The translations under genes and the position numbers were made by a program. The notes beneath the pieces were generated by a model. It worked only from the letters and a program-made list of their open reading frames with translations. It did no database searches and was not told the DNA's origin. Of a stretch of 32,331 bases of DNA, positions 3,922-30,197 are shown one piece after another; positions within the stretch are counted from its first letter, which is position 1; each line of letters starts with the position of its first letter. Source of the stretch: a virus. The stretch lies in the IMG/VR virus record IMGVR_UViG_3300025671_007983, positions 1 through 32,331 of that record; one strand, written 5' to 3'.

Positions 3922-3925
3922 TATT

Positions 3926-5662: not shown

Positions 5663-5676
5663 GACCGGAGAAGATT

Positions 5677-8600
5677 ATGTTTAATGATAGGCCGATTGCT
5701 GGATTTCCCTTTGCTTCAACATCTGAACGTGATATTATTGGACTTCCAGGTGGACCGCCTGGAGATTTTCCGGGCTGGCCACCGGGTGGACCGCCTGAAG
5801 GTTGGCCACCTAGAAGAATTGAAAATACAAAATGTTACAGTTGTAGTAAACAATGTATTAATACAGAATTTTGTTCAGAAGGAAATAGATTAAATATTGA
5901 TTCTGTTGCTTCAACGAACTATTCTCTATCAAGAAATATTAGGGTTTCTATCACGGCGAATCCTGAATTTTGGGGATTTAGCGGAGTTTTAATTTCTGGA
6001 TGGGCTACTTATTCTAATGGATATTATGACTTTTTTGACGGTCATGATGAAGACCATAAGGCATTTAGGGATTGTGAAAGCAGTGCTTATGATGGCGGAC
6101 CATGGGTTAACGAGCAAAGACCAGATGTATTTTTCAGGTCTGTTTATGATCCAGATACAGGTATAACAAAGCATTATGGAAGCAATGGCGTTCTTGAAGG
6201 AAGTGGTATAGGCAGGGGTGGTGCCGAAGTATATCTTGTTGATAGGCCGAAAGGATTAATAGCCGCAGTTACAGCCGATACAAAGTCATGTCCAGAGACT
6301 GAGCCTTATAAAATATTTAAGCAGTTTCCAGAAAACTTTGGATGGGGAAATAAGATAAATTTTAATACCAAGATTTATAGGAATATGAGTGGAGCGTGGA
6401 GATTAGCAAGTGTTGAAAACTGCCACGAAGAAGAAGATATTTTTATTCCATCTGGTTATTTAGTGGGATGTGATGGAGAAGCTAAACAAAATATAATTTC
6501 CAGCAACAAAAGATTTCAGAAATATGACTATTCTAGAATTAAAACAACTGGTGATTCTTCTTACTTTAATTATTCTTCCGCATGTAGGCCGGATGGTGCA
6601 GTAGCAGGAAAATATGCCGGTTATTTTTCAGACGTTAACAGTATTTACAGAGACACATCAGAATCGCCATTTATTCAAGCCCGTCTGTCTTATGGTTCGT
6701 ATGGCAATCCTATCCCAGCTAGCGGATTAAAAAACGGAATGACAATCGGTATTAAAACGGATGTTAATCCAGAAATCTTTAACAATATATACACGATTTT
6801 TGATATGAACCACTATGGAACATATACTTCTGTTAAATTTGTAGGAACATCTACTGGTAACGCACCATTAACTGCTAATATGCCAACTGGAAACTTTTCT
6901 ATAGGAATAGGTGATAGTGGACACTGGGTTGCTTTTGGAACGTATGATGAACAAACATGCTGCGGTTTGTCGGCATATGGAGTTTCAGATGAAACAAAAA
7001 GCCTTTGCGATGTACAAAATTATCATACTGACTTCAGAAGAGTATTCAATAATCCAAAAAATTTAAGACAGTCAAATCGTGATCGTGAATGGAGATATGA
7101 TTATGATTTATTTAATACAATACAGCCTGCTTCTGCTAGCATTTCTGGGGCTATTGATAGGACTTATCCATCAATAAGTGGAGTTACTATTAGCGGTGTG
7201 GAATATTTTTATCCAGTAATCGTTAGTGGAGATTCTTATATAGTTGCCTCTGGATCAGATCCTATAGAAAGCGGACATGCATTATTTGAAAGGGTTAAAT
7301 CATACTACGGTTCGTTTTTTGATACCGATAGATGCGACAATATCGGAAGATTTGATCAAGCTCTAACTAAAGGGAAGTCTAGAAACGCCACATGTTATAG
7401 CAAACATGCCACTCTTGAAGTCTTTCCAGACTGTGTAACGCAGTATGATAAATATACTAGCTGTCCAGATCCAGAGAGTCAAGAAATATATCTGACAAAT
7501 AAAGTAGCTAGATTGGCTTTTGTTTATAGAGGTTGCGACTTTAATGACAATTGTTCTTTTGATTCTAGTGGACTTCCTTTAGGTGCATGGAAAGACCAAG
7601 GAAGTGTTCCTACGGGCATAGAAGATTTAAAAAGACAGCTTGGTGGTCAAGAGATCCACATGTTTATTAATTTAAATTCTGCATGGGGTGGAAGACCTTC
7701 AAACAGTCCCTGTTATTGCGACTGTGACAATCAAGGTTCTGAGGCACCAACATCTGCACCAACACATGCGACGATAGCGAGTCCAATAACATATCCGCAT
7801 TTGCCAAATTTTGATTTAGATCCAACGGGATATGGATGCTTAGACCCAAGACATCAAATATCTGATTTAATAAATAAGGTTCTTCATCATGGACAGGAAG
7901 ATGCTGTTGAATTTTTTGCAGACAGCGAATACTGTGACCCACTACATACCAATCCATATTCATGCCTAGTAAGACAGCCGTATACTACATATGGCTATAT
8001 CATGAATCTATGCGGCAAAGAATCAAAGAATAGAAAAAATGTCATAACAGAAGCGTTTGCGAAACTTCATCAAGAAAAAACATATACTAATGCAAATCCA
8101 ACCGGCGACATAACAGAGCCTATGTATTGGAATGTAGAAGCTCCAACGCCAGCACCTGAAACTGGTGGCGGCTATTGGGGCAGCGGAACACTGGAAAGAG
8201 AAGATGGCGTAGGGCCATTTGTTCAAGTAGCGGGTAGTGGTTATGGTTATTGGGGCGTGGCTGATAGCAATGGTCAATTAATAGCACCTTATTTTGTGAC
8301 AGAGAAAGCAGAAAACACTTGTAATGCGTCACAAGACTGTGAGTCAACTGTAGACTATCTAGACTATAGCACAACTGGAACATTCACAAATATATTAAAT
8401 ACAATTAATGGATGGCCCACAGACAGTGTGCCATTTTTAATAGAGATAGAAAGTGCAGACGACTGCAACGGATGCGTTACATCAAAAATGGAAAATAAAA
8501 ATCTGACATTAGAGATAGAAGGACTAAATACAGAATTTATCTTTGATCAGAGGAAGACAGGATCAGAATTGACAAGACTTGGAAGATATGGACATAATTA

Positions 8601-11600
8601 TTGTGCCTATGGTCCAGTTAGTCAAAATGTTGCTGGATTTGGCAAGGTTAAGATAGACGGACTTCCTTTTAATTGTGATACTGGTTTTAATGCTAGCGGA
8701 TGTGGAGATTCATCTTATTATTCAAAGTTTGCTAGTGCATACGAAGGAAACACCTGTCAATGCGCAAGCGGTATTACTACTACCTTATATCCGGTTATTG
8801 TTTCTGGTACAAATGATTTAATTTTTGGCTTTACTAGCAATCCAGGTGGAGATGCTGATGGATTAACAGAGATTTCTGGATGCAATGATTTAAACAGTTC
8901 CTATTTGGACGTTGGCTATGACGAGAAGGGAGGTAATGGATATAGAATCTACGCTCAGTTTGACTTAGCATGTCCAAGCATGTTTGTATTTATGAAAAAT
9001 GCAGAATATCCAGACGCTAAATATGAAGGAGACTCATTAGCTTCATTCTATGCACCCGGATGTAGTTATCATTATCCACCAAAAATTGGTGAGGATTTAC
9101 AACTTAGAACAACATTTTGGATGATTGCAGAAACTCATGTAAATACCTTTATGAAGTTATCAGAGTATGCATTAAAAAGAATACCTGGAATGAACTATGC
9201 AAATGGAGTTCTTTACCCTCCTGGCGGTCAAAACTATTGGGGAGATCAAGAAACTAACTATTTTGGTCTTTGTCCTGGGGATAAATTTTATACATACGGC
9301 TGTAAGCCAGAAGGAACATATTTTTATGGAGAGCCAGATGATGAAGGTAGATATGCTCCAAATTATCAAGTATGTCTAGATAATACGGTATGTAGTAGCT
9401 GTCCAAATGGAACTGGCCCAGGCGAAGTAACATGTGTTTGTGGAGAACAAGTAGGCTATGAAGGAATTATACCAAGACCCGTTCCACTTAATTATCAGTT
9501 TAATGAATGTGACTGCTTATGTAAAGATCCATATTTATTAGCAGAATACACTATATTGCCAGGAAATACTGGATATGTTTTGAGTAATGATTACGGGAAT
9601 GATGTAACTCAAGCTATTGTTTATTGGATGTCATATGACGGGACTCCAATTATGGGAAATCTTCAGGGAGCTATATTAAATCCAGAACAGCCATATATGG
9701 GATTATATCTTGGATCAAGAGATAGTCAAGACTGGTTTAATTGGAATCATGGAATAAATGGAATATCAAGTGGAATTGGACATGAACTATATGAGCCATA
9801 TTATGGAGTAGAGCTTCCAAGTTCTACTGACTGTGAACAATTAACGATTGATTATTCTTCTGAACCGGGCAATGTAATTAACTGCGCAGAAAATACAGGA
9901 TGCGTAGCAAATACAGATTCTAATTCAAGAACTTGCGGTGTTCCAATTTATATGAGCGGAGGCATACCTGAAGATTCAGTAAAAGTAAGAAAGAAAAGAT
10001 GCTCTCCTGAAATAGCAATCGTTACAAAAATTGACTGCATTGAGAATGTAGGATATAGGCTATATTTGGCGAGAGAATATCATGAACACGATAGAACATG
10101 GAAGGAATTAAAGACTTATGAAGATCCAGAAACTGAAGAGACTATTAGTAAGTGCTTGCCAATTAATGCGGGATCTTATGAATATAATGATGGAACTTCA
10201 TCTGGCTGTTTTATTATGCCATATGCAACACTAGCGGATATTGTAACTCCTGTTTCTAATGCTCCCTGTAGTATAAAACCATCTTCCGGGGTGTATGTTT
10301 CTCAGGATTACAAATATCAAAATCCAGGTTTTCCTTCTGGAAGTCACGTTTGGAATTATTTTAACTTGTTTTATAGTGCCTCTTTAATCCCAACGGTTAA
10401 TAATGGCACAGTATCGGCCTCTGCACCTTTTCTAAGCGGCGAATATGTTTGTAGTGGAACCCCCGAGGCTATACAGAATACAGGCACAATATTTACATCC
10501 ACGCAGTATAACTCGCCATCGGGATTCAACGGAATATTCGCAACAACCGGAACTCATAGTTGCGTACAAGATTCAATTACGTGTGGTGGTGAACTATGGT
10601 GTAATAAGATGTTTTTTCCAAGACATAGCTATAAAAAAGGAACAAAATTAGCACCATTTGGAGGATCTCAAATTTGCCTGGACAATAATGACATTTCTAA
10701 TCATCCAACAAATATTGGGTATGTAGAAGAGACAGCAGATAGTGCTGCTGGAGGAAAAACTGATTTTACGATACCAACAGCAATTCCACTTTTAAATGAG
10801 ATGAAAACAAGATTTGTAGACTTTTGTGATGATAATGTGATTCAGGAAACACTAGATTATTTGGGAATAGATGATGATACAGTATTAGTTGAAGATTATT
10901 TACCACTTATAGGAGTTGTTCATCCAGGTTGGAGATTCACATCGGATACAAAAAGTTGTACATTTGGCGGAAGTGGATGTCAAGATGATATTCAAACACA
11001 TACAGAGGCAAGTATTTTGGCCGGTATACATGCACCTAAAACATGGAATGTGAATAGTTTTGAATCAATGGGTTATTATCTTGATCGTTTTGGTGTTTCT
11101 TATAAGAATGGTGAATTAGTTAGAGCCAGCGGTGTTGATCAATGTTTATTCAATCCTTTTAAGATTTTGATAGACGTTGAGTGTAATTTAAATAGAATAG
11201 CTAGGAAACAATTCCCTCTAGATCCACCTACCTTTTTACAGGGTGTTCAGGAGTGGCCTTCACGGGCTTGTCAGGGGATTATTCATAGTCCTGGATGTAG
11301 CTGTAGTTCAACCCAATGTAAATATGCAACTAAAAATAAGCCTGGAGAATGTATTCTTTTTAATTTAGCAGAATATACTGCTACGATAAGTTCTGACGCA
11401 GAAGGTCCATGTTTGGATGGGGTAACTCCAGCTGGCCTTTGGTATCATAATAGTAAGATCGGAGAATCAGCACCAACTAGACGCTGCAATGAAACTTTCG
11501 TAGAGCCGGGATTCTGGGCTGTTAATGGTTGCAATGCATCACAAGCACTTAGAATAAGCAGCTCTAAAAGTTATGTTAGGATGTGGCAATGTAAAGAAAA

Positions 11601-11904
11601 CCAGTATTTACATAAGCATCCTGGGAATTTTATATCATTTCCAGACGAAATATGTGATTGTCAGTCACAAGTTGTAGATGGTCTATGTGGTGCAGAAGTT
11701 TTCTGCACAGACTATACAGACTGTGATTGTAATCCAATACCATACGGGGGCGAATACGTAGTTGCCACTCCTACAAGTAGCGGTGTAAGAGAATGGTGGG
11801 CTTCAGATTGTGAATGTGATAAAATACCACAAGATGATTCACAAGGTGTTGGTAATTTCTGCTCTGATTCTATTATTAAATGGATAGTTACAGAATCAAG
11901 TTAA
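5677..11904 (+). CDS. Giant Cys-rich virion-type protein (2075 aa)
   Basis: The ATG at 5677 is preceded by GGAG seven bases upstream. Residues ~24-46 form a Gly/Pro/Trp-rich stretch (GGPPGDFPGWPPGGPPEGW). The rest carries about 84 cysteines by hand count (~4%), many as close pairs or triplets (KCYSC, CYCDCD, CDCLC, CSCSSTQC, CDCNP, CECDK), spread along the whole length. The segment YPVIVSG occurs twice (near residues 502 and 1032), hinting at repeated modules. There is no signal peptide, membrane segment or enzyme motif. The size and position suggest a tail-tip, fibre or adhesin protein, perhaps cross-linked by disulphides or metal. That is inference, and I do not recognise a family. The stop TAA at 11902-11904 directly abuts the stop of the opposing gene. 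Confidence 0.6.
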   Translation: MFNDRPIAGFPFASTSERDIIGLPGGPPGDFPGWPPGGPPEGWPPRRIENTKCYSCSKQCINTEFCSEGNRLNIDSVASTNYSLSRNIRVSITANPEFWGFSGVLISGWATYSNGYYDFFDGHDEDHKAFRDCESSAYDGGPWVNEQRPDVFFRSVYDPDTGITKHYGSNGVLEGSGIGRGGAEVYLVDRPKGLIAAVTADTKSCPETEPYKIFKQFPENFGWGNKINFNTKIYRNMSGAWRLASVENCHEEEDIFIPSGYLVGCDGEAKQNIISSNKRFQKYDYSRIKTTGDSSYFNYSSACRPDGAVAGKYAGYFSDVNSIYRDTSESPFIQARLSYGSYGNPIPASGLKNGMTIGIKTDVNPEIFNNIYTIFDMNHYGTYTSVKFVGTSTGNAPLTANMPTGNFSIGIGDSGHWVAFGTYDEQTCCGLSAYGVSDETKSLCDVQNYHTDFRRVFNNPKNLRQSNRDREWRYDYDLFNTIQPASASISGAIDRTYPSISGVTISGVEYFYPVIVSGDSYIVASGSDPIESGHALFERVKSYYGSFFDTDRCDNIGRFDQALTKGKSRNATCYSKHATLEVFPDCVTQYDKYTSCPDPESQEIYLTNKVARLAFVYRGCDFNDNCSFDSSGLPLGAWKDQGSVPTGIEDLKRQLGGQEIHMFINLNSAWGGRPSNSPCYCDCDNQGSEAPTSAPTHATIASPITYPHLPNFDLDPTGYGCLDPRHQISDLINKVLHHGQEDAVEFFADSEYCDPLHTNPYSCLVRQPYTTYGYIMNLCGKESKNRKNVITEAFAKLHQEKTYTNANPTGDITEPMYWNVEAPTPAPETGGGYWGSGTLEREDGVGPFVQVAGSGYGYWGVADSNGQLIAPYFVTEKAENTCNASQDCESTVDYLDYSTTGTFTNILNTINGWPTDSVPFLIEIESADDCNGCVTSKMENKNLTLEIEGLNTEFIFDQRKTGSELTRLGRYGHNYCAYGPVSQNVAGFGKVKIDGLPFNCDTGFNASGCGDSSYYSKFASAYEGNTCQCASGITTTLYPVIVSGTNDLIFGFTSNPGGDADGLTEISGCNDLNSSYLDVGYDEKGGNGYRIYAQFDLACPSMFVFMKNAEYPDAKYEGDSLASFYAPGCSYHYPPKIGEDLQLRTTFWMIAETHVNTFMKLSEYALKRIPGMNYANGVLYPPGGQNYWGDQETNYFGLCPGDKFYTYGCKPEGTYFYGEPDDEGRYAPNYQVCLDNTVCSSCPNGTGPGEVTCVCGEQVGYEGIIPRPVPLNYQFNECDCLCKDPYLLAEYTILPGNTGYVLSNDYGNDVTQAIVYWMSYDGTPIMGNLQGAILNPEQPYMGLYLGSRDSQDWFNWNHGINGISSGIGHELYEPYYGVELPSSTDCEQLTIDYSSEPGNVINCAENTGCVANTDSNSRTCGVPIYMSGGIPEDSVKVRKKRCSPEIAIVTKIDCIENVGYRLYLAREYHEHDRTWKELKTYEDPETEETISKCLPINAGSYEYNDGTSSGCFIMPYATLADIVTPVSNAPCSIKPSSGVYVSQDYKYQNPGFPSGSHVWNYFNLFYSASLIPTVNNGTVSASAPFLSGEYVCSGTPEAIQNTGTIFTSTQYNSPSGFNGIFATTGTHSCVQDSITCGGELWCNKMFFPRHSYKKGTKLAPFGGSQICLDNNDISNHPTNIGYVEETADSAAGGKTDFTIPTAIPLLNEMKTRFVDFCDDNVIQETLDYLGIDDDTVLVEDYLPLIGVVHPGWRFTSDTKSCTFGGSGCQDDIQTHTEASILAGIHAPKTWNVNSFESMGYYLDRFGVSYKNGELVRASGVDQCLFNPFKILIDVECNLNRIARKQFPLDPPTFLQGVQEWPSRACQGIIHSPGCSCSSTQCKYATKNKPGECILFNLAEYTATISSDAEGPCLDGVTPAGLWYHNSKIGESAPTRRCNETFVEPGFWAVNGCNASQALRISSSKSYVRMWQCKENQYLHKHPGNFISFPDEICDCQSQVVDGLCGAEVFCTDYTDCDCNPIPYGGEYVVATPTSSGVREWWASDCECDKIPQDDSQGVGNFCSDSIIKWIVTESS

Positions 11905-13000: not shown

Positions 13001-13689
13001 GATTCATTCCAATTCTCTTGATAGCCTTTTAAATCTTTACTGAGAGTACTATCGCCCCTTTTGAATTTATTGATCATATCAATCATCTTAGCGGCTGTTT
13101 CTCTCTTAACCTCGTACACAGTATTATATTCTTTTTCTCCAGAATTGATGAACTTAATTAGATCAATATCTAATTTTTTGCAGTTCATATCAAGATACTT
13201 TATTTGTTCCGGTTTAATTCTTTCGTCAAGCTGTCCAATTTGCTGACTTAGATATTCTGAAACATCTTTTTTGCATAGTTCTTCAGCAGCAACAGCACGT
13301 ATTTTTAATGCCTTTCTCAAAGCACGGCCCTCTGCTTTGGTTGCGGCAGTTGCGGGAGCATGAACTGCGAAAAGATCATCAGTGTTTCCGGCCCATACAT
13401 CAGATACATCAGCATAAGTTTTTACATATTCTTTATCATCTTTCTTGACAAGGAATTGTACTTCATAAATAACTGTAGTTCTACCTATTGGATCATTAGT
13501 CTCTACACGCTGTACATCTACTGGCCTGCTTGAAATGATCTCGCCAATGAGCATCTCTGCAACACGCCTCAATCCAGCAGTCAAAGGATTGCCATCAATT
13601 AGCTCTTTATCAGTAAAGAATTTCATGACATAATCATTCCATTCTGGAGATAGCATGTCGGGTATACTAGATTCTTCTTGTTTGTCCAT
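12997..13689 (-). CDS. Candidate single-strand annealing / recombination protein (230 aa)
   Basis: The ATG at 13689 has a GAGG ribosome binding site inside the 3' end of the upstream endonuclease gene. Residues ~90-150 read as strands followed by the segment ATAATKAEGRALRKALKI and an Ala-rich helix. This resembles the central helix of Rad52/Sak/Erf-type annealing proteins, where Ala/Lys-rich segments of this kind are conserved. The C-terminal ~60 residues (IKPEQIKYLDMNCKKLDID, then a second helical pair) look like the small helical module that often ends phage annealing proteins. The adjacent RecA-like and nuclease genes further right fit a recombination role. It is not an exact match to any family I can name. 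A general DNA-binding protein is the alternative. Confidence 0.45.
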   Translation of the reverse strand: MDKQEESSIPDMLSPEWNDYVMKFFTDKELIDGNPLTAGLRRVAEMLIGEIISSRPVDVQRVETNDPIGRTTVIYEVQFLVKKDDKEYVKTYADVSDVWAGNTDDLFAVHAPATAATKAEGRALRKALKIRAVAAEELCKKDVSEYLSQQIGQLDERIKPEQIKYLDMNCKKLDIDLIKFINSGEKEYNTVYEVKRETAAKMIDMINKFKRGDSTLSKDLKGYQENWNES

Positions 13690-14494
13690 CTTTTACCTCA
13701 ATTTCTATCAAACGGTTTTTTTGTGAAGGAAAATTATTCTTTATGGATTCAACTTCTCCGACTACTAAGTTTAACAGATGGTTCATCTTTGTCAAGGAAA
13801 TACTTTTGTCAATTTGACGAATTCTGATGATTACATATCCGCCATTTATCAAAATACCCTGCTTTGCCGTATCTGCTATTTGCTGTTTGATCAGTTTCTC
13901 TTGACCCCATATCGGCAGGAAGTGGCCGGGACCATCAATTTCAATTGCTGTTTTTACTTCGGGTAAAAATAAATCTACTTCCAAATTATTACCAAATACC
14001 AGCCCAGTTTTATGAAATTCAACTTTGTATCCTAATTTGGCAAGTCCATTATTTAAATGTCTTTCAGTTTTAGATCCAAGCTTACTCGCCTGTCTGACAC
14101 TTTCCAGTGCTAGACTTCTTATTTCTTCCTGTTTCGCCCTGCCTAGAGCCTGCCAATTGGCCTTGCTAATTTCGGCAATTCTTTTTTTCTCTTCTTCAGG
14201 AAGTAAATGATATGCTTTAGATCTAGATTCTCCTATTTTTCTTTTATGAACATTGTCTAATTTCTTACCTTCTGTTGGATGTCTAGCACGACCCTTTTCT
14301 AAAGCTAATTTTTGAGCTTCTGAATAATCTCTTTTGAAATAATTTTCATCGTCATGCAGAATCTTGCCAAGAAACTTTAAAGCTCTTAGGATTTTAGTAG
14401 AGTATGTATTTAGAGATTCAGCTATTTCATAACTACTATGTCCTCTATTATACATATCAAGTATCTTGTCTTTGTTTTTTAAAGCAAATTCCAT
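13667..14494 (-). CDS. VSR/PD-(D/E)XK-type homing endonuclease (275 aa)
   Basis: The ATG at 14494 has a strong GGAGG ribosome binding site. Residues ~8-43 form a helix-turn-helix (DMYNRGHSSYEIAESLN), and residues ~70-95 look like a NUMOD-type DNA-binding motif (KLDNVHKRKIGESRSKAYH). The C-terminal domain begins with SKTE (141-144) and carries EVDLFLP (D174), AIEIDGPGH (E185, D187, H191) and later VIIRIRQ. This pattern fits the very-short-patch-repair-like nucleases (EDxHD type) seen in free-standing phage homing endonucleases. It would cut DNA at a specific site and promote its own spread. It sits between the glycosyltransferase cassette and the recombination genes, overlapping both neighbours by 16-23 bp. 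Confidence 0.8.
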   Translation of the reverse strand: MEFALKNKDKILDMYNRGHSSYEIAESLNTYSTKILRALKFLGKILHDDENYFKRDYSEAQKLALEKGRARHPTEGKKLDNVHKRKIGESRSKAYHLLPEEEKKRIAEISKANWQALGRAKQEEIRSLALESVRQASKLGSKTERHLNNGLAKLGYKVEFHKTGLVFGNNLEVDLFLPEVKTAIEIDGPGHFLPIWGQEKLIKQQIADTAKQGILINGGYVIIRIRQIDKSISLTKMNHLLNLVVGEVESIKNNFPSQKNRLIEIEVKDGQTRRI

Positions 14495-17684: not shown

Positions 17685-19321
17685 TTTTCACAATCTCCTG
17701 TAAGTTTTGATCTATTAACTCTTCCATCTTCAAATGAATTATAGATTTGGAGCCTATTTTTGAAAATATTTAAGATAGTTTCTCTATTTATAGGTCTTGG
17801 CTTATTTGAAGAGAACGGGGAGAATTCACTAGTGTAAAATCCATCCCAAGATGATTTAGAAAATCCCCTATTCAAATCTGTTAACATATTTCTAGCAAAA
17901 TGAGAATTCTTATGTGGTTCATAATATATATAGCCATCTAATAGTTGTTGCAAGAAGTTATAGTTGGAGGGTTCTTTCATATTAATATCTGGAGGCGGTA
18001 TTATCCTTAGAGGTTGCTTCCAATCGGCATATTTGCATTTATCAATAACTTTCATCCACTGTTCAGCGGTTGTATCCCAATTATAATTTTCATCAAACAG
18101 TCTTCTGGTTTGTTTTGATTTCTCTAGCCTCTCTTCTTTATTAAGAGAGAAGAATTGTTTTAGGATACTTACTATAGAATCATTTTTTGGAACAGCCCTA
18201 TTGCATCCAGTTTCCAACTCCTTGTAATAGGAATACTCTATTGGATATGCACCTAATTTATTGACAACATCCTCCATCGCTGAATAATTTGTACATGCTA
18301 TTGGTATTCCACAAGCAGCAGCTTCAACCTGCGGAAGACCAAATCCCTCAGAGTTAGCACATTGAATGTAGATATCAAATACATTATATATTTTAGCTAA
18401 TACCTCGTCAGGGACTCCATTTGAAACACTTGAAGGTGACGAACTATATTGTTTACATGAACTGCATACCTTTTTTGCATCTCTAAAGAAGGAAGCTTCA
18501 ATATGATTGCATTTTTCACAAACATATGTCATTAATACTCTAGAAGAGACTTCGCTATTGTGGATTAAATCTGCTAAGTTCCATCCAGCATCTGGAAAGC
18601 TAGTATGCAAATATAAGAAAGTATTTTTATCTCCAGACTCTTTTAGATATTTGCCAAATGATTTGATTAGTACTGGAAACAATTTCCTTCTTTGATTTCT
18701 CATGACTGTGCCAACTATATTCACATCAGATCTTAAATTCAATTCAGATCTAATAGCATCCTTATCCATTGGAAAAAAACATGCAGAAGCAGAAGGCGAA
18801 GCAGAACCTACAGTATTTATATTCTTTCCAACTTGCTGTTCTAAGATATTTTTAGCCCAATCCGAATAAGTTAAAATGTAATCAGCATTTGAAAAAATAT
18901 CTACCCATTCTTGATTTTGTGGACTTGCATCCACTGTTGGCATCCAGGCCCATGAAAATATTCTTCTAAAAGGAGAATGATAGATGAAAGAGTCCATCCA
19001 AAAATCTCGAATAGTTAACACTATATCTGGTTCAAAATCTAAACAAATTCTATCAAATCTCCATGCTCCGAATTGATTAGCTGGATTTGCATTATATGCT
19101 TGAACTTGATCTTGATTGTTTACATCCGGCATATTTGCATAATTTTTCCACGGAATACTGGATCGTCGTGGATCTTCAGCATTTCCATATATAGAAAATT
19201 CTGCTATATCATATTTACCAGTTCTATAAATTCTTGATATAACTTCGTTGCTATACTTAGCATATCCTGTATTTAGATATGCAGCTTCTGAGATAAACAG
19301 TATTTTTTTCTTTCTAGACAT
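17672..19321 (-). CDS. Family 4/1 glycosyltransferase with inserted zinc ribbon (549 aa)
   Basis: This is the longest gene in the cassette and the only one with a complete GT-B signature. The N-terminal Rossmann half starts KKKILFISEAAYLNTGYAKYS. The C-terminal half has NIVGTVMRNQRRKLFPVLIK near residue 201 and SEGFGLPQVEAAACGIP near 324, with E325 and E333 forming the E-x7-E motif of nucleotide-sugar binding. Between the two lies C268-x2-C271 and C286-x2-C289, a compact zinc ribbon inserted in the C-terminal domain. The enzyme should transfer a sugar from a nucleotide donor to an unknown acceptor (DNA, virion protein or host surface). It overlaps the sigma-factor gene by 8 bp and is probably transcribed from the same promoter. 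Confidence 0.85.
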   Translation of the reverse strand: MSRKKKILFISEAAYLNTGYAKYSNEVISRIYRTGKYDIAEFSIYGNAEDPRRSSIPWKNYANMPDVNNQDQVQAYNANPANQFGAWRFDRICLDFEPDIVLTIRDFWMDSFIYHSPFRRIFSWAWMPTVDASPQNQEWVDIFSNADYILTYSDWAKNILEQQVGKNINTVGSASPSASACFFPMDKDAIRSELNLRSDVNIVGTVMRNQRRKLFPVLIKSFGKYLKESGDKNTFLYLHTSFPDAGWNLADLIHNSEVSSRVLMTYVCEKCNHIEASFFRDAKKVCSSCKQYSSSPSSVSNGVPDEVLAKIYNVFDIYIQCANSEGFGLPQVEAAACGIPIACTNYSAMEDVVNKLGAYPIEYSYYKELETGCNRAVPKNDSIVSILKQFFSLNKEERLEKSKQTRRLFDENYNWDTTAEQWMKVIDKCKYADWKQPLRIIPPPDINMKEPSNYNFLQQLLDGYIYYEPHKNSHFARNMLTDLNRGFSKSSWDGFYTSEFSPFSSNKPRPINRETILNIFKNRLQIYNSFEDGRVNRSKLTGDCEKWLS

Positions 19322-19790
19322 TATTCCTCTTATCCATACGCGACTTCATTGCTGCAATTATTTTAGAAACCTTGTTCGGGGAAATATTTAACCTTGAGGC
19401 AATATTTTTGTTTGTTTCTCCAACAATCTTCATGTCAACTATTTCTTTTTCTAATTCTGTTTTAACACAGCAAATATCTTGATAATCTAGACACGAAAGA
19501 TCTTGATCGCTACTATAGCTCATATTGTAATTACCTGTATACAAAAGTTCGCCTTGCATTTTATTAGACTTGATAAACTTAATCATATCATTTCTTACGC
19601 AGTGTGTAATAAAAGTAGAAACCTTTCCTCTAGTCTCATCGTATTTATGACCGTTCTTGCATAGTGACAAAAATCCAACCTGTATTAAATCGTCTTTAGA
19701 AAATAACTTATTTTTGATATATATGGAATTTGCTATGCTGTACACAAGCCTTTTGTTATCCTCAATCATTTGTTCAACGTCTATACTCAT
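19314..19790 (-). CDS. Short sigma-70-like RNA polymerase sigma factor (158 aa)
   Basis: Residues ~13-76 match sigma region 2: RLVYSIANSIY, DDLIQVGFLSLCKNG, YDETRGKVSTFITHCVRNDM. Residues ~113-152 match region 4 with a helix-turn-helix: EIVDMKIVGETNKNIASRLN, then ISPNKVSKIIAAM. Regions 1.1 and 3 are absent or minimal, so it is about the size of T4 gp55-type late sigma factors rather than a host housekeeping factor. It would recruit host RNA polymerase to phage promoters, probably late ones such as those driving the structural genes. It has its own near-consensus promoter and a palindrome at the start site, so it is likely the regulated first gene of this transcript. The start ATG at 19790 follows AAGGGA. 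Confidence 0.85.
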   Translation of the reverse strand: MSIDVEQMIEDNKRLVYSIANSIYIKNKLFSKDDLIQVGFLSLCKNGHKYDETRGKVSTFITHCVRNDMIKFIKSNKMQGELLYTGNYNMSYSSDQDLSCLDYQDICCVKTELEKEIVDMKIVGETNKNIASRLNISPNKVSKIIAAMKSRMDKRNNV

Positions 19791-19888: not shown

Positions 19889-21427
19889 CTATATTGAAAA
19901 AACTTTATCTACGATGAATGAGTTTCTTTGCCTGTCTTGTATCTCCCCAGACATGAGAACAGTGGCTTGCTCATACATTATATCTTTGTTTTGCTCGTAT
20001 ATGTCTGGAAAAACTACAATATTTTCAAGCTCGCCAGATTCATCTTCAACTGACAAAAAAGCCATCAAATCTCCATTTTTTGTTTTGTGCTCTCTTATTC
20101 TTTTTATTATTACGGCTATGATTGAGTTATCTTTCTTGCCATCATTTATTTGTTTGCATGTAGTATTTGCATTGGCAGCTTCCGAGCATGAATTAAGCTC
20201 CGAGTGATTTATGGAATAGCCAAGCAGCTTCTCCTCTATTTTTGCGTAAATCATCCCATTATCGGCTAGATTTCTTCCGGGGTTATTGACTCTTGTAAGT
20301 ATATTATTAATCTTGTCAAATCTACTGGCGGTGGAAATAAAGCCTCCATTTTTCTTTAATCCGTAACTGATAAACTTATTCAGAATATCGGATAGAGATC
20401 CATCACACTTAATATTTTCTTTTATTGCCTGCATTTCTTTCTTTGTTAGGTCTAGATAGCAATGGTATTCATGCAACATTTCATTTCTACTTTTGCCAAA
20501 TCCAGCAAACGCACCAGTCTTGATGAGATTTTCTATTGCCTTTTTATTTACAGATGGCAGTATATTTATCAAAATATTGCTCCATGTCTTTTCCCCTTTA
20601 AGACTTTTGAATCCTTCTATAAGTTGATTTAAATGTGCCCTTCCAACATTCTTCACATTGCAAATACCAAAATAAATGCAGCCATTTTTCCATGAAAAGT
20701 TTTCTTCAAGTATATTAATATTTGGTCCGCGAATCTCTATATCTTCTGCTTTAGCGGACATAATTAATTGCCTCTTTTCAAAATCTGGATCTATTTTCTC
20801 ATCTGCGTTCCTTAGCCAATTCTTAAAGAATTTCTCTGGATGATGATATCTTACCCATGCTGACCAATAGGCCATTTTGGCGTAGGCAACAGCATGGGAC
20901 TTATTGAATGAATATCTTGCTGACTTTTCAATCATATCGAAAATTTCAGTAGATTTTGATTCCTCGATATTGTTATTCTTGCATCCCTCAATAAATTTTA
21001 CGCGAACCTCTTTCATGAGGTCTGCTTTCTTCTTGCCAATAGCTTTACGAAGATCATCTGCTTCCTTGAGATTAAATCCTGCCATCTTGACTGAGATTTC
21101 CATCGCTTGTTCCTGGTATACGATAACTCCATAAGTCTCTTTAAGCATATCGTCAATTAAAGGGTGCAAACTTGGAATTTCTTCCTTGCCGTGTTTGCGG
21201 TCAACGAAGTGCTGAGTCATGGATTTTCCATCTACTATAGACTTTAGAGTTCCAGGTCTAATAATACTGATAAGAGCAGCAAGCTCCATCATATTTTCTG
21301 GCTTCAATTTTTGACACCAAGTTTTACCAAGATGGCTTTCAATTTGGAAGCATCCTTTGACGCGACCTTCGCCTATCATCTTCCAAACATCTTTGTCATT
21401 TTCTGGAACAGTAGTAATATCAATCAT
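19889..21427 (-). CDS. dnaE: DNA polymerase III alpha, C-terminal part (split DnaE)
   Basis: Residues ~1-200 continue the C-family polymerase catalytic and fingers region. FQIES (27-31), ISIIRPGTL (~53-61), YGVIVYQEQAMEIS (~99-112), LRKAIGKKKADLM (~126-138) and SFNKSHAVAYA (~173-183) follow E. coli DnaE order. The HhH region (NVKNVGRAHLN, LIKTGAFAGFG) follows, then an OB-like domain near 410-510 (LMAFLSVEDESGELENIVVF). The tau-binding C-terminal domain of E. coli DnaE is missing. No catalytic aspartate lies here; all three are in the separate N-terminal gene at 22496-24337, so the two products must assemble. The ATG at 21427 has AAGGGA and overlaps the HNH gene stop by 8 bp, so it is an independently translated start, not an intein or a simple frameshift. 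Confidence 0.9.
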   Translation of the reverse strand: MIDITTVPENDKDVWKMIGEGRVKGCFQIESHLGKTWCQKLKPENMMELAALISIIRPGTLKSIVDGKSMTQHFVDRKHGKEEIPSLHPLIDDMLKETYGVIVYQEQAMEISVKMAGFNLKEADDLRKAIGKKKADLMKEVRVKFIEGCKNNNIEESKSTEIFDMIEKSARYSFNKSHAVAYAKMAYWSAWVRYHHPEKFFKNWLRNADEKIDPDFEKRQLIMSAKAEDIEIRGPNINILEENFSWKNGCIYFGICNVKNVGRAHLNQLIEGFKSLKGEKTWSNILINILPSVNKKAIENLIKTGAFAGFGKSRNEMLHEYHCYLDLTKKEMQAIKENIKCDGSLSDILNKFISYGLKKNGGFISTASRFDKINNILTRVNNPGRNLADNGMIYAKIEEKLLGYSINHSELNSCSEAANANTTCKQINDGKKDNSIIAVIIKRIREHKTKNGDLMAFLSVEDESGELENIVVFPDIYEQNKDIMYEQATVLMSGEIQDRQRNSFIVDKVFSI

Positions 21428-21830
21428 TTTTCCCTTTAGTATAAAATAGTTTGCCTTTTATTAAGTATATCAACACTCTAAACAATATAATTAAGTCATC
21501 ATTGAATGCACCTAGACCTCTATTACATTTATGGCATAGCCACCCTCTAAAACGATTTGTTTCATGACAATGATCAATAACCCATGCGGATGCCTTACTG
21601 CTTCCTTCTCCACTGCATTCTTTTTGGCTTCTCTTGCAAATAGGGCATGAGTAATTTGAATGGGGCATTCCATAATGTTTACGAAGTTCTGAACGACGTT
21701 TAGATAGTTTACTGTTACATTGCTTGCACTCTGTTCTGAGATAATTTTCTCCACCTCTTTTGCTAAAATTAGTTATAGGTAAAGACTTTTTGCATTTAAC
21801 ACATATTTTTACTTCAGTATTATTAATCAT
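21420..21830 (-). CDS. Endonuclease VII-type HNH homing endonuclease (136 aa)
   Basis: I chose ATG 21830 with AAAGGTG upstream; a GTG at 21839 is also in frame. The N-terminus has a zinc-binding pair, C10-x2-C13 and C35-x2-C38. The core has C62-x2-C65, then WVIDHCHETNRFRGWLCHKC (83-102) and NRGLGAFNDD, the signature of phage T4 endonuclease VII-like HNH proteins. Such proteins either resolve branched DNA or act as free-standing homing endonucleases. Because this copy lies inside a polymerase operon and is bounded by a direct repeat, the homing role is more likely. It overlaps dnaQ by 8 bp and the polymerase C-terminal gene by 8 bp. Confidence 0.85.
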   Translation of the reverse strand: MINNTEVKICVKCKKSLPITNFSKRGGENYLRTECKQCNSKLSKRRSELRKHYGMPHSNYSCPICKRSQKECSGEGSSKASAWVIDHCHETNRFRGWLCHKCNRGLGAFNDDLIILFRVLIYLIKGKLFYTKGKND

Positions 21831-21831
21831 T
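21422..21831 (-). repeat. Direct repeat AATGATT bounding the HNH gene
   Basis: AATGATT occurs at 21825-21831 (dnaQ stop / HNH start) and at 21422-21428 (HNH stop / polymerase C-terminal start), 403 bp apart. As a result, dnaQ and the HNH gene both end in Asn-Asp-stop. Deleting one repeat and the interval would leave dnaQ ending normally and dnaE-C starting at the same ATG behind the AAAGGTG site. This fits a clean insertion of the HNH gene. Seven bases can also match by chance. Confidence 0.5.
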
Positions 21832-22506
21832 AAATGCACCTTTGAAATTTTTTCTAGAAGCGGTAGTTCTCAACATTCGCATAGTTCTACAGAATAGCTC
21901 TGCGGTCATGATAACATCAGACATAGCATCGTGTGCCGTGCCAGAAGAATATCCCATATAACCTCTAACAAGATTATCGGCAGAAAGAGAATTAACATCT
22001 TTGTTATTTTCAAACATAGCGAACATAAAATCAAGTAGATCTATACTATGTATTCTATTGAATATGTTTTGTTCGCCACGTTTATCATCAACTGGGCCAA
22101 ATTTGTATGGCTTTTGTGTGCATAGGCGATTTACAATAATGGAGTCAAACCCTCTAATATTATAACCAACAGAAATTGGGGCACCCCAATTGCCACCTTT
22201 AAAGTTGAATTGGTTAACATAATCTGTGAAGTTTTTCCATACAGATTCTGCTGATGGTGCATTTTGAAGAATTTCTTCAGTCTTTCCATGAACTGCTACC
22301 GCACCCGGCTCTAGCGGATCTATCTTTAGCTTTTTACATTGGTCTTTGTCAAAGACTGGTTTCATCAAAGATTGAAATTCTGTACCTTCTTTAATCTCAA
22401 GCTTTCTTCCATGAATTGCAACAGCAGCAATTTGCACTGGCTGCGTAGTATTTGGATTAGCACTTGTAGTTTCAAAGTCATACACTATATAATCTCTATA
22501 ATTCAT
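21823..22506 (-). CDS. dnaQ: DnaQ-like DEDDh 3'-5' exonuclease, polymerase proofreading subunit (227 aa)
   Basis: I chose ATG 22506, giving MNYRDYIVYDFETTSANPN, with GAGG upstream. A longer frame to 22566 runs deep into the polymerase gene. Motif I is YDFET (D10, E12). Motif II region is SVGYNIRGFD (D121). Motif III is AHDAMSD (H192, D197), the DEDDh pattern of DnaQ/ExoI-type exonucleases. It would remove mismatched 3' ends and probably proofreads for the C-family polymerase encoded by the genes on both sides. Start overlaps the polymerase N-terminal gene stop by 11 bp and stop overlaps the HNH start by 8 bp, so translation is coupled along the cluster. Expected active-site residues are intact. 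Confidence 0.85.
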   Translation of the reverse strand: MNYRDYIVYDFETTSANPNTTQPVQIAAVAIHGRKLEIKEGTEFQSLMKPVFDKDQCKKLKIDPLEPGAVAVHGKTEEILQNAPSAESVWKNFTDYVNQFNFKGGNWGAPISVGYNIRGFDSIIVNRLCTQKPYKFGPVDDKRGEQNIFNRIHSIDLLDFMFAMFENNKDVNSLSADNLVRGYMGYSSGTAHDAMSDVIMTAELFCRTMRMLRTTASRKNFKGAFND

Positions 22507-24337
22507 TATTTGCCTCATGTATAGTTTCGGATATTTTCTTGAGCAAATTAACGCCAAGAATGTCAAATTTCACGCAGCCAAGAGATTCTAAGTCTTGCAT
22601 TTCCATTCCCGCTATCTGTTCGGAACTTCGTGATGACTTTACCATAGGGCAAACTTCTTGCAATTCATCAGAGGAAATAACCACGCCAGCAGCATGTTTT
22701 CCTTGAGTCTTAAAGATGCCTTCCATTCTCATAGCCTGTTCAAATGATTTTGCATAATCGCCTTGTAGATTACCATCGTCATCCAGCCAGCAATAGTCAA
22801 TGAGGGCATTCTTGTCATTTTCTAGTGCCCATCTAATAACTGATGGATTGTCCATTTCTTCCAGTAGGTCAGAGATAGCAGCTTCATTGGGGATCTTTTC
22901 TGTAATCTGATTCATCTGTTCAAATCCGCAGGATTCATTGACCCTCAACACCTCTTTAATTATAGACCTACCGGCAAGCTTGCCAAATGTTAACATCTGA
23001 CAAACTCTAGATTCTCCGTACTTATCTTTTAGATATTGAATAACATCATCACGATAATCTGGAGGGAAGTCAACGTCAATATCTGGCAATGAAACATGAT
23101 CGTCTGTATTTCGTCCTTCATTATAGAATCGCTCAAATAGAAGACCATATTCAATAGGATCAATAAGTGTTATGCCTGTTAGATAACACACTAATGATCC
23201 TCCACCAGATCCTCGTGCTGGTCCAACCAAACATCCCAGATCACGAAAGTGATTAACATAATCTTGGACAATTAAAAAGTACCCAGCTAGGTTGGCCTTC
23301 TTAATGACTTCTAATTCTTTGAGAACTCTATCTTTATATATTTCTACTTTACTTGAATCTATGCGATCCATTATGAGTTTTCTCCAGCCATTACGACACA
23401 ACTGTTTCAGGTATTCATCTTCTGATGAGCCATCTGGAGTTTCAAATGCTGGCAGTTTAGGTTTTGATAGAATATTTATTTCATCAACTAGATTTGCAAT
23501 ATTTGCAAGGTTGTCTATGCAGTTATTATCGTAATGCTCAGTAAGATAATTAAAATCCTTGATATAGTAATTGCTACTGCGAATAAACCTTAAAGAATCA
23601 AGGTCTTTCTTTTCAGAGATTTTTTGATCTAATTGCCTCATGGTAGTTTTAAGCTTGGTGCAAATCAAAACTCTATGATCAATAGCATCTTTTCTTTCTG
23701 GATAAAATGAACTTGTATCTGGTATGCAATCGTCAGTATTTACAGATTTAATTATTTCAGTCATAATCTTTGTTACTGGATATGACTCGTGGTCTATGTT
23801 GTTTATCTCTAGAAAATAGCTGTGAAAAATATTCTTCATGTATTCTATATGATTGCTAGACACTTTGAGGTGATCTTCAACTAGACAATCTTTGATGCCA
23901 TCATCATCAATAGTATCAAATATACATTCATCACTGCTGATTACTTTTGAGAATAATAGACTGCCAACATATCCATCAATACAAATGAAGTTATCTGCAT
24001 CAATAGTTTCAATAAGTTGGTCCAAAGAAATTCTTGGAGTTTCCTTGAAATTATCTGGACTGTTAGATACAGAAATCACTTTTAGTAGATCAACCCACGC
24101 CGCATTGTTCATGCAGATGAGTGTAATTCTAGAGTTATTATCTAGTATGATTTCTGATCCTATAATGGGCTTAATATCTGATTTTTTACAAGCCTGTATG
24201 AAATTAACACATCCGCTAATACTGCTAACATCAGTAATGCCAGCATGTCCCCATCCATGATTCTTACATATCTTGGCTATCTGGTCGCACCTTGAGGTAG
24301 AAAGCAGTAGTGAATAATGGCTATGATTTCTGATCAT
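22496..24337 (-). CDS. dnaE: DNA polymerase III alpha, N-terminal part with catalytic residues (split DnaE)
   Basis: C-family replicative polymerase, N-terminal half. Residues 1-90 are the PHP domain, degenerate at key metal sites (RNHSHYS instead of HxHxH, TDV instead of TDH). The palm carries GPARGSGGGSLVCYLTGI (372-389), LPDIDVDF (D421, D423), GKHAAGVVIS (~546-555) and KFDILG (D592), corresponding to E. coli D401, D403 and D555. The protein ends 21 residues after D592 with NNEL. Together with the separate C-terminal product (512 aa) the total is 1125 aa, close to the 1160 of E. coli DnaE, so nothing large is missing except the tau-binding end. The start overlaps the preceding nuclease gene by 17 bp; an ATG at 24337 is used. 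The two parts presumably associate non-covalently. Confidence 0.92.
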   Translation of the reverse strand: MIRNHSHYSLLLSTSRCDQIAKICKNHGWGHAGITDVSSISGCVNFIQACKKSDIKPIIGSEIILDNNSRITLICMNNAAWVDLLKVISVSNSPDNFKETPRISLDQLIETIDADNFICIDGYVGSLLFSKVISSDECIFDTIDDDGIKDCLVEDHLKVSSNHIEYMKNIFHSYFLEINNIDHESYPVTKIMTEIIKSVNTDDCIPDTSSFYPERKDAIDHRVLICTKLKTTMRQLDQKISEKKDLDSLRFIRSSNYYIKDFNYLTEHYDNNCIDNLANIANLVDEINILSKPKLPAFETPDGSSEDEYLKQLCRNGWRKLIMDRIDSSKVEIYKDRVLKELEVIKKANLAGYFLIVQDYVNHFRDLGCLVGPARGSGGGSLVCYLTGITLIDPIEYGLLFERFYNEGRNTDDHVSLPDIDVDFPPDYRDDVIQYLKDKYGESRVCQMLTFGKLAGRSIIKEVLRVNESCGFEQMNQITEKIPNEAAISDLLEEMDNPSVIRWALENDKNALIDYCWLDDDGNLQGDYAKSFEQAMRMEGIFKTQGKHAAGVVISSDELQEVCPMVKSSRSSEQIAGMEMQDLESLGCVKFDILGVNLLKKISETIHEANNEL

Positions 24338-25331
24338 CTTCTAGTCTTCCTCCACCAGCACCGTATTTTCCAATTTTATTGAGATTTGCATATTCAAGTA
24401 CAGTCTTGTCCATGCCTTCTGATTCTACCATATCGTAGAAGTATTGGCAAGTCGTTTTTCCGTCTTTGAAGTTTTCAGAAAACTTGCACAGCTTAGTGCA
24501 TTTCCAATGACTTTGATCTTTAGACAACTGGTTTGGTAGATTGATAGATCTTATTTTTTCAAACTTTTCTCTAAGCATATTTTCAGCTTTATCATAATCT
24601 TCATCAGAAAAGACTATATCAAAAATGCCTCCATCATTGACATAATAAATACTGGTGTAAAAATCATGATCTGGATACATGTTCTTTAAAGCATAGAAGT
24701 AGAGTAAAAGCTGCTTGTCAGAACATAGGTCTTTATATGTTTTTTCTTTGCCTGTGGCCCAGTTCAATCTTTTACCAGATTTGTAATCTAATACTTGGTA
24801 GTAAGACTCATCTTCTTTGATTATTAAGTCTATCGTCCCTTTGATTGACAAATATCCAGAAAATTCTTTATCGCCAACAAAATATTGATATGCCGCCCAG
24901 GGCTTTTTTATTTCTATGTCAAAGAATAATTCAGTAGCATGAACATTTTGATTTCTAGGATCTAATTCCCCATTGTTATAAGCTAATGCCTTATGTACCC
25001 ATTCAATGCATGTTTTCAAGTCTTTTGAGGTTAAGTTTACATCATCTTCATGTTTTTTATAGTATTCAAAACATAAATGCGTAACATAGTCTATATCGTC
25101 ACATTCTGCAAATGTCAAATCCTGAATATCATCATTGGAGAGCTTTTTCTTTTTATTGATCTGTGCTATTTTCTTATCAGCAAGTACTTGCATAACGCGA
25201 TGAAAAACCGTTCCCATGACTGCTTTTTTATTCGTCTTATCTTTCATTCCAAGTACATACTGAAAGAAGTATTTCATTTCGCACATTTCCATCGTACTTA
25301 AAGATGAACTCCGGTGATAGCAGACTATCAT
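24321..25331 (-). CDS. RecB-family PD-(D/E)XK nuclease with Fe-S cysteines (Cas4/AddB-like, 336 aa)
   Basis: Motifs in order: SSLSTMEMCEMKYFFQYVLG (C17), H44 in TVFHRVMQ, D168 in IKGTIDLI, D182-Y-K184 in VLDYKSGKR, and QLLLYFY (207-213). Near the C-terminus are C278, C282 and C295 (WKCTKLC, then TTC). C17 with the three C-terminal Cys is the four-Cys arrangement that holds a 4Fe-4S cluster in Cas4 and AddB nucleases. The protein would degrade or process DNA ends, probably in recombination or replication repair. It starts at ATG 25331 with GGGA, immediately after the 160-bp non-coding gap, so it is probably the first gene of the polymerase transcript. Confidence 0.85.
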   Translation of the reverse strand: MIVCYHRSSSLSTMEMCEMKYFFQYVLGMKDKTNKKAVMGTVFHRVMQVLADKKIAQINKKKKLSNDDIQDLTFAECDDIDYVTHLCFEYYKKHEDDVNLTSKDLKTCIEWVHKALAYNNGELDPRNQNVHATELFFDIEIKKPWAAYQYFVGDKEFSGYLSIKGTIDLIIKEDESYYQVLDYKSGKRLNWATGKEKTYKDLCSDKQLLLYFYALKNMYPDHDFYTSIYYVNDGGIFDIVFSDEDYDKAENMLREKFEKIRSINLPNQLSKDQSHWKCTKLCKFSENFKDGKTTCQYFYDMVESEGMDKTVLEYANLNKIGKYGAGGGRLEDDQKS

Positions 25332-29317: not shown

Positions 29318-29805
29318 TTGAAACTCCTATGTTTTCCAAGATCTTGAAATATTGAGACTCTTTTCCTGACATCTTTGGCGGATTCAGATAGAATTTGCAT
29401 TGCTGCATATAATCTAATTCTAGCCTTTTCTACACTTTGTGCAAAAGAATTTTCTAATATGATGGACTTCTTTTTGATTTCAGCAGGAAGATACTTGTCG
29501 TATTTATCCCAGTATTTAGCATACAAAAAATTTAATGCTTCAACACACCATGTATGTTGACTGTGTACAACATCATATTTTTTCTGAAGTAGACTGGCAT
29601 AATTCATTAAAGTAAGGGCATATGCAAAACATTCGTCATTTGACAATCCAAGTATGTCATCATGAGACATATTTATTATCATGTCATACTGGTCATTCTC
29701 TTTATAGTCAATAACTCCGTTTTCTACACAGAAGTCTTCAACCCATTTGGTAAATTTTTCTAAGACTTCTATTGATTCATAGCTTGTTGTATTAAATTCT
29801 TCCAT
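29314..29805 (-). CDS. Helical hypothetical protein in replication block (163 aa)
   Basis: The sequence reads as mostly alpha-helical, with many Tyr, Trp and charged residues (LTLMNYASLLQKKYDVVHSQ, then LNFLYAKYWDKYDKYLP). No catalytic, zinc or membrane motif is visible. The ATG at 29805 overlaps the VSR-like nuclease gene by 37 bp. It is conserved in gene order with recombination and replication genes in this window, so it may be a scaffolding or accessory factor. I do not recognise a family and cannot assign a function. Confidence 0.55.
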   Translation of the reverse strand: MEEFNTTSYESIEVLEKFTKWVEDFCVENGVIDYKENDQYDMIINMSHDDILGLSNDECFAYALTLMNYASLLQKKYDVVHSQHTWCVEALNFLYAKYWDKYDKYLPAEIKKKSIILENSFAQSVEKARIRLYAAMQILSESAKDVRKRVSIFQDLGKHRSFK

Positions 29806-30197
29806 GTGTCTTTCTCATTAAAGGGCAGTACAACGATATTGATATTGTTCATCTCACACCATTCAATTTTATCAGTATCTCTTTTCTTGGCATTAACAAA
29901 GTCTATTTTGTCTTTATGAAAGAATGAGCAGTACTGATAATGCTGTCTTCCATGCACTTCAATTACAAGCATTGCGTCTGGAATGAAGAAATCAGCATAT
30001 AATAAAGAAGATCTTCCAAGTCGCTTAGAACCTGGAAGAGTTACTTCTTCATATATAGAAAGGCCAGGAAACATTTCTTTGATAATGTCTCTAGCCAAAG
30101 TATGCAAAGATGATTTATTTTTCAGGAATTTTCTGACTCTGTTTTTTGCGTAATTGAATAGATGTTGTTTGTTGTCAAATCCAGTTACTCTAAACAT
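29769..30197 (-). CDS. VSR/DUF559-type PD-(D/E)XK endonuclease (142 aa)
   Basis: Residues ~66-128 carry the nuclease core: LYADFFIPDAMLVIEVHGRQ (D69, E80), HYQYCSFFH and KKRDTDKIEWCEMNNINIVV, with a conserved RD..K segment. This is the arrangement of very-short-patch-repair-like nucleases. The N-terminal ~45 residues are basic and helical (KNRVRKFLKNKSS) and may bind DNA. It could be a free-standing homing endonuclease or a junction- or mismatch-cutting enzyme. The gene sits directly after the RecA-like gene, overlapping it by 8 bp. No NUMOD or zinc motif is seen, so a phage DNA-processing role is also possible. Confidence 0.7.
   Translation of the reverse strand: MFRVTGFDNKQHLFNYAKNRVRKFLKNKSSLHTLARDIIKEMFPGLSIYEEVTLPGSKRLGRSSLLYADFFIPDAMLVIEVHGRQHYQYCSFFHKDKIDFVNAKKRDTDKIEWCEMNNINIVVLPFNEKDTWKNLIQQAMNQ

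What the first reader, a model, noticed from the sequence alone, without database searches (positions are those of the whole stretch)
19889..24337. C-family DNA polymerase split into two genes that flank their own proofreading exonuclease
The N-terminal gene holds all three catalytic aspartates (D421, D423, D592) and ends 21 residues after the last. The C-terminal gene begins with residues that follow directly in E. coli DnaE, so the two add up to a near-full-length enzyme. A DnaQ-like exonuclease and an HNH endonuclease lie between. Each start overlaps the preceding stop and has a ribosome binding site, so the split is a real two-subunit design. The break is not at the YCFN/FNKSH site used by cyanobacterial split DnaE inteins. 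The frames at the outer junction do not match, so removing the middle genes would not give one ORF. PolC of Gram-positives has an exonuclease inserted in its PHP domain; here the exonuclease gene sits inside the palm instead.
Basis: partly seen in the sequence, partly recalled or inferred. Interest (0 to 1): 0.85.

Follow-up and report, generated by a model that had tools for sequence, protein, structure and literature searches.

The report
Phage replicase split around its proofreader
A large group of uncultivated phages makes its main DNA-copying enzyme as two separate proteins, with the gene for a proofreading exonuclease always lying between the two halves; such gene splits are known in other phages, but this one is unusually widespread and consistent.

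Summary
On the minus strand lie an N-half (PHP, palm, thumb; all three catalytic aspartates), a DEDDh exonuclease, an HNH gene and a C-half (fingers, HhH, OB). Predicted structures of the halves match E. coli DnaE 8-576 and 583-1073, so only about six linker residues and the tau-binding tail are missing. The break lies at the palm/fingers boundary, not inside the palm. It is no artefact: a sibling contig agrees (10,215 of 10,228 bases), and 123 distinct IMG/VR loci keep the order N-EXO-C, none fused; dN/dS is about 0.05-0.08. In 23 records (up to 244 kb) no other replicative polymerase was detected. Splicing is unlikely: N and EXO overlap here, EXO and C overlap in close relatives, and no intron or intein was found at the break. 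The HNH is a passenger, absent from the nearest relatives but found at the same junction in some distant ones. Splits at the same residue also exist in mycobacteriophages Cuke/Fowlmouth (independent) and Rossellomorea phage phiT1. Best reading: a non-covalent two-subunit alpha with a co-expressed epsilon-like proofreader. Assembly itself is inferred, not shown. New variant of a known kind.

The parts
22496..24337 (-). N-half of DNA polymerase III alpha (PHP, palm, thumb), 613 aa
   Evidence: Pfam PF02811 + PF07733; model matches E. coli DnaE 8-576, Z 36.0
23075..23083 (-). Codons of catalytic aspartates D419 and D421 (E. coli D401, D403)
   Evidence: alignment
22562..22564 (-). Codon of catalytic aspartate D592 (E. 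coli D555)
   Evidence: alignment
21823..22506 (-). DnaQ-like DEDDh exonuclease, 227 aa; D10, E12, D121, H192, D197 invariant in the family alignment
   Evidence: Pfam PF00929; family alignment; residue positions
21420..21830 (-). HNH endonuclease of the Endonuclease VII family, 136 aa; mobile passenger at the EXO/C junction
   Evidence: Pfam PF02945; absent in nearest relatives; same junction in L264, L271-L273, L318
19889..21427 (-). C-half of DNA polymerase III alpha (fingers, HhH, OB), 512 aa
   Evidence: Pfam PF17657 + PF14579; model matches E. coli DnaE 583-1073, Z 21.1
24321..25331 (-). PD-(D/E)XK nuclease, neighbour in the replication operon
   Evidence: PF12705
25492..26304 (-). Deoxynucleoside monophosphate kinase, neighbour
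   Evidence: PF21448
26304..27377 (-). DnaG-like primase with TOPRIM, neighbour
   Evidence: PF13662, PF08275
27298..28779 (-). DnaB-like helicase, neighbour
   Evidence: PF03796
30190..31227 (-). RecA/UvsX-like recombinase, neighbour
   Evidence: PF00154; phrog_97
19314..19790 (-). Sigma-70-like factor immediately downstream
   Evidence: PF04542

Best explanation
The window encodes a C-family replicative DNA polymerase whose alpha subunit was divided at the palm/fingers boundary in the ancestor of a large tailed-phage lineage and has stayed divided. The N-half (PHP-palm-thumb, all catalytic carboxylates) and the C-half (fingers, HhH region, OB) are translated separately from one operon and most likely associate non-covalently into one alpha-like enzyme. 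The DEDDh exonuclease made between them acts as an epsilon-like proofreading partner. Shown here: gene order, homology, conservation, purifying selection, and no other replicative polymerase detected in the records searched. Inferred: physical assembly, polymerase activity and the proofreading role. The HNH gene is a later mobile insertion at the EXO/C junction and is not part of the design.
For: Domain content and three catalytic aspartates; the two predicted models match E. coli alpha 8-576 and 583-1073; 123 distinct loci N-EXO-C, none fused; family monophyletic, 100/100; dN/dS 0.046-0.077, approximate because dS is near saturation; DEDDh residues invariant; no PolA, PolB or second fingers domain in 23 records up to 244 kb; 11-nt N/EXO overlap here and about 20-nt EXO/C overlaps in close relatives. 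Precedent: divided phage 25 gp43A/gp43B co-purify and are active (PMC2988022).
Against: No experiment and no model of the complex. No beta clamp was found in 23 records and no clamp motif was seen at the E. coli position, so the processivity mechanism is unknown. Records are linear and may be incomplete, so a second polymerase could be missed. EXO matches epsilon/PolC exonucleases only weakly.
Confidence: 0.82

Rival explanations
1. Genes-in-pieces: a homing endonuclease insertion broke a fused gene, as with mobE in Aeh1 nrdA, and the present HNH (or a lost predecessor) is the cause of the split.
For: An HNH gene lies between the halves; mobile elements repeatedly invade this locus: intein parts, LAGLIDADG and HNH ORFs in relatives.
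Against: Nearest relatives are split without any HNH; the HNH sits between EXO and C, not at an N/C junction; Cuke and Fowlmouth are split at the same residue with no gene between. A lost ancestral element cannot be excluded.
Confidence: 0.1
2. The halves are joined by trans-splicing (split intein) or by RNA splicing.
For: Cyanobacterial DnaE is a trans-spliced split protein (own knowledge); L042 and L037 of this family carry Hint/intein domains elsewhere in the C-half.
Against: Neither half ends in an intein domain; no Rfam match in the window; N and EXO overlap, and EXO and C overlap in close relatives, leaving no room for an intron flanking the exonuclease.
Confidence: 0.03
3. The exonuclease is not a proofreader of this polymerase but an unrelated nuclease that merely travels between the halves.
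For: Various other genes also occupy the gaps; EXO resemblance to known epsilon is weak.
Against: EXO is the only gene always present between the halves in 123 loci; it is as conserved as or more conserved than the polymerase; DEDDh residues invariant; PHROG match to a DNA polymerase exonuclease subunit.
Confidence: 0.12
4. Assembly or sequencing artefact, or a decayed gene.
For: Metagenomic contig; no reads available.
Against: Same arrangement in a sibling contig and 123 distinct loci; strong purifying selection on all three genes.
Confidence: 0.01

Closest known systems
Two-gene DnaE of mycobacteriophages Cuke (gp86/87), Fowlmouth (gp85/86) and MrMiyagi (83/84)
   Same: DnaE divided at the residue aligned with E. 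coli 576; adjacent overlapping genes
   Different: No exonuclease between the halves; closest relatives fused; independent fission (AU p 3e-160)
Rossellomorea phage phiT1 gp20/gp19/gp18
   Same: DnaE divided at the residue aligned with E. coli 578
   Different: 49-aa ORF instead of an exonuclease between; about 30% identical; shared origin with this family neither shown nor rejected (p 0.24)
Split minimal Pol III alpha of group 2.2 jumbo phages (PMC7824862)
   Same: C-family catalytic core in two proteins
   Different: There the genes are distant, only the minimal core is present and a family B polymerase accompanies it; here PHP and OB are present, genes are adjacent and no PolB was found
T4-related gp43A/gp43B (Aeromonas phages 25 and 44RR) and Aeh1 split NrdA
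   Same: Essential phage enzyme divided into two adjacent genes that work as a complex (PMC2988022)
   Different: Family B polymerase or reductase; associated with a homing endonuclease or untranslated insertion
Cyanobacterial split DnaE
   Same: C-family alpha encoded by two genes
   Different: Halves are ligated by a split intein at another site (own knowledge); no intein at this break
Gram-positive PolC
   Same: C-family polymerase paired with a DnaQ-like exonuclease
   Different: There the exonuclease is a domain within the PHP of one chain; here it is a separate gene between two polymerase genes

Membership tests
C-family (DnaE-type) DNA polymerase | PHP, palm/thumb, fingers and HhH domains | tested here: met
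   PF02811, PF07733, PF17657, PF14579 over the two proteins; structure matches
C-family (DnaE-type) DNA polymerase | Three catalytic aspartates | tested here: met
   D419, D421, D592
C-family (DnaE-type) DNA polymerase | Polymerase activity | not testable with these tools
   Needs expression of both halves
DnaQ-like DEDDh exonuclease | D, E, D, H, D active-site residues | tested here: met
   D10, E12, D121, H192, D197, invariant in 11 sequences
DnaQ-like DEDDh exonuclease | Binds alpha and proofreads (epsilon role) | not testable with these tools
   No complex modelling or assay available
Split-intein DnaE | Intein halves at the break | tested here: not met
   No Hint/intein domain in N- or C-half; junction aligns with fused enzymes with only about six residues missing
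Genes-in-pieces caused by a resident homing endonuclease | Split present only where the endonuclease is | tested here: not met
   Relatives split without HNH
Split minimal Pol III alpha of jumbo phages | Minimal core without PHP, halves encoded far apart, PolB present | tested here: not met
   PHP present and halves adjacent; no PolB in 23 records
Homing endonuclease (HNH gene) | Cleaves the uninterrupted EXO/C junction and is copied into it | not testable with these tools
   Only occupancy of the same site in divergent relatives is shown

The most novel reading that the evidence does not exclude
The exonuclease is an obligate structural subunit that bridges the two halves, so the replicase is a true three-protein core (alphaN, epsilon, alphaC) that cannot assemble without proofreading, and that works without a canonical beta clamp of its own.
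Probability: 0.2. Interest if true: 0.8.

Novelty: new variant of a known kind. Interest (0 to 1): 0.62.

Why it matters
It indicates that the core of a bacterial-type replicase can be permanently divided at the palm/fingers boundary across a large, diverse phage lineage in which no other replicative polymerase was detected. The same residue has been a fission point at least twice independently, which marks it as a natural cut site and makes subunit assembly directly testable. The fixed gene order N-exonuclease-C suggests, but does not prove, coupling of proofreading to assembly. No phage record in the INPHARED collection exceeds about 31% identity to either half, so the lineage is essentially uncharacterised.

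Tried and rejected
HNH as cause of the split: rejected. Intron or intein at the break: no support. Artefact: rejected. A scan of 84,980 cellular genomes with the EXO profile found no relative, but a later scan with the N profile found MAG-binned contigs of the family, so the first negative was a limit of sensitivity. phiT1 N-half as query for viral contigs: nothing. Top 'phage' hits MT83xxxx, Y1 and SA 1306 Kay were treated as probable bacterial chromosome because their neighbours look like pfkA, accA or nrnA (named by eye). Beta clamp in 23 records: none found. Literature searches for this arrangement found nothing beyond the jumbo-phage case; the library lacks most subscription journals.

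Full report
What is there. The window is a 32.3 kb virus record. On its minus strand a replication operon runs RecA/UvsX, DnaB-like helicase, TOPRIM primase, dNMP kinase, PD-(D/E)XK nuclease, polymerase N-half, exonuclease, HNH, polymerase C-half, sigma-like factor. The four genes in question overlap by 11, 8 and 8 nt, with RBS-like purine runs before each start, weak for the HNH gene.

Where the break falls. Predicted models of the halves (mean pLDDT 90 and 86) match E. coli DnaE 8-576 (Z 36.0, rmsd 4.2, 551 residues) and 583-1073 (Z 21.1, 457 residues, rmsd 9.0; against the Taq ternary complex 3e0d rmsd is 3.8 over 424 residues, so the high figure probably reflects domain motion). Sequence alignment agrees. 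That the fingers start at about residue 561 is from memory of Lamers et al. 2006. Catalytic aspartates are D419, D421 and D592. Nothing of the core is missing; the tau-binding tail is.

Conserved and selected. Scans of IMG/VR gave 123 distinct loci (de-duplicated on the last 900 nt of the N gene) in which N, EXO and C are all seen, in that order, and none in which N and C are one ORF. Each scan keeps only the 80 best matches, so fused distant members are not excluded; fused cellular DnaEs did appear at 31-37% identity. The family is one clade (100/100) on a long stem. dN/dS between the window and its nearest relative is 0.077 (N), 0.055 (EXO) and 0.046 (C); dS is near saturation, so these are approximate. 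A sibling contig, identical at 10,215 of 10,228 bases, carries the same arrangement.

Probably the replicase. In 23 records of up to 244 kb, profiles for PolA, PolB and the beta clamp found nothing and the fingers profile found exactly one place each. The records are linear and may be incomplete. A terminase match in 7 of 13 records supports tailed phages.

The HNH is a passenger. The nearest relatives have EXO directly followed by or overlapping C. HNH genes of the window's family also sit exactly between EXO and C in L264, L271, L272, L273 and L318; there EXO and C are 40-44% identical to the window's while the HNH is 57-65%. L264 and L273 give identical figures and may be near-copies. This fits lateral movement into a preferred site, but cleavage was not tested. 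A different HNH-like ORF (named by eye; no Pfam match) is at the same junction in L159. Other genes also occupy the N/EXO and EXO/C gaps.

Not a one-off fission. Mycobacteriophages Cuke and Fowlmouth have DnaE divided at the residue aligned with E. coli 576, while their relatives Indlulamithi and Troll4 are fused. Grouping them with the window family is rejected (AU p 3e-160); grouping phiT1 with it is not (p 0.24). So at least two independent fissions hit this boundary. Send513, Weasels2 and Jayan are divided elsewhere.

Mechanism. Most likely two chains fold as PHP-palm-thumb and fingers-HhH-OB and dock through what is normally an intramolecular interface, and the exonuclease proofreads. The nearest tested precedent is divided gp43A/gp43B of phage 25, which co-purify and are active (PMC2988022). 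Assembly, activity and the exonuclease's partner are inferred. The PHP motif has V where L093 and L106 have H (TDV versus TDHG); this would fit reliance on a separate proofreader but was not analysed further.

Verdict. Observation confirmed with corrections; interpretation partly supported; new variant of a known kind.

Noticed in passing
L042:10518-13343: The C-half of this relative is itself broken at FNK|SH by two Hint/intein-like pieces flanking a 305-aa ORF with a marginal DUF559 match: it looks like a split intein with a free-standing endonuclease in a polymerase that is already split.
   Followed up: partly
L037:9497-11860: In-frame intein-like insertion with an HNH domain at RPG|C in the C-half.
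   Followed up: partly
L046:6989-9840: N-half interrupted just before LPDIDVDF by an insertion with a LAGLIDADG ORF; not tested whether it is a group I intron.
   Followed up: partly
L047:9473-11034: C-half further divided at about residue 278 with an ATGA overlap, so the polymerase would be in three pieces; a sequencing frameshift is not excluded.
   Followed up: no
L098, L104, L111 between EXO and C: 2.7-3.7 kb of extra genes, including ThyX-like and pseudopilin (DUF1559-like) ORFs and, in L104, a DUF1501-like ORF, named by eye; the latter two are typical of Planctomycetota (own knowledge), a hint at hosts.
   Followed up: no
L093:8851-9030 and similar gaps in other loci: A small protein of about 60 aa lies between N and EXO in the L081-L126 type of relative; no Pfam match. 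96 of 123 loci have an N/EXO gap of 131-260 nt that could hold such a gene.
   Followed up: partly
L264:6986-8623; L271, L272, L273, L318: A subclade with a shortened N-half (about 515-550 aa); in L264 the profile match skips model positions 107-220, in the PHP region.
   Followed up: no
window 13667-14494 and 29769-30197: Two further HNH/homing-endonuclease-like genes in the same window.
   Followed up: no
window 301-11904: Three long plus-strand ORFs (1206, 578 and 2075 aa) with no PHROG match.
   Followed up: no
L262, L263 (contigs binned as Lokiarchaeota), L260, L261, L265 (Bacteroidota), L264 (SAR202): Members of the split family occur on contigs binned into MAGs of very different phyla; likely virus contigs, so binning does not settle the host.
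   Followed up: no
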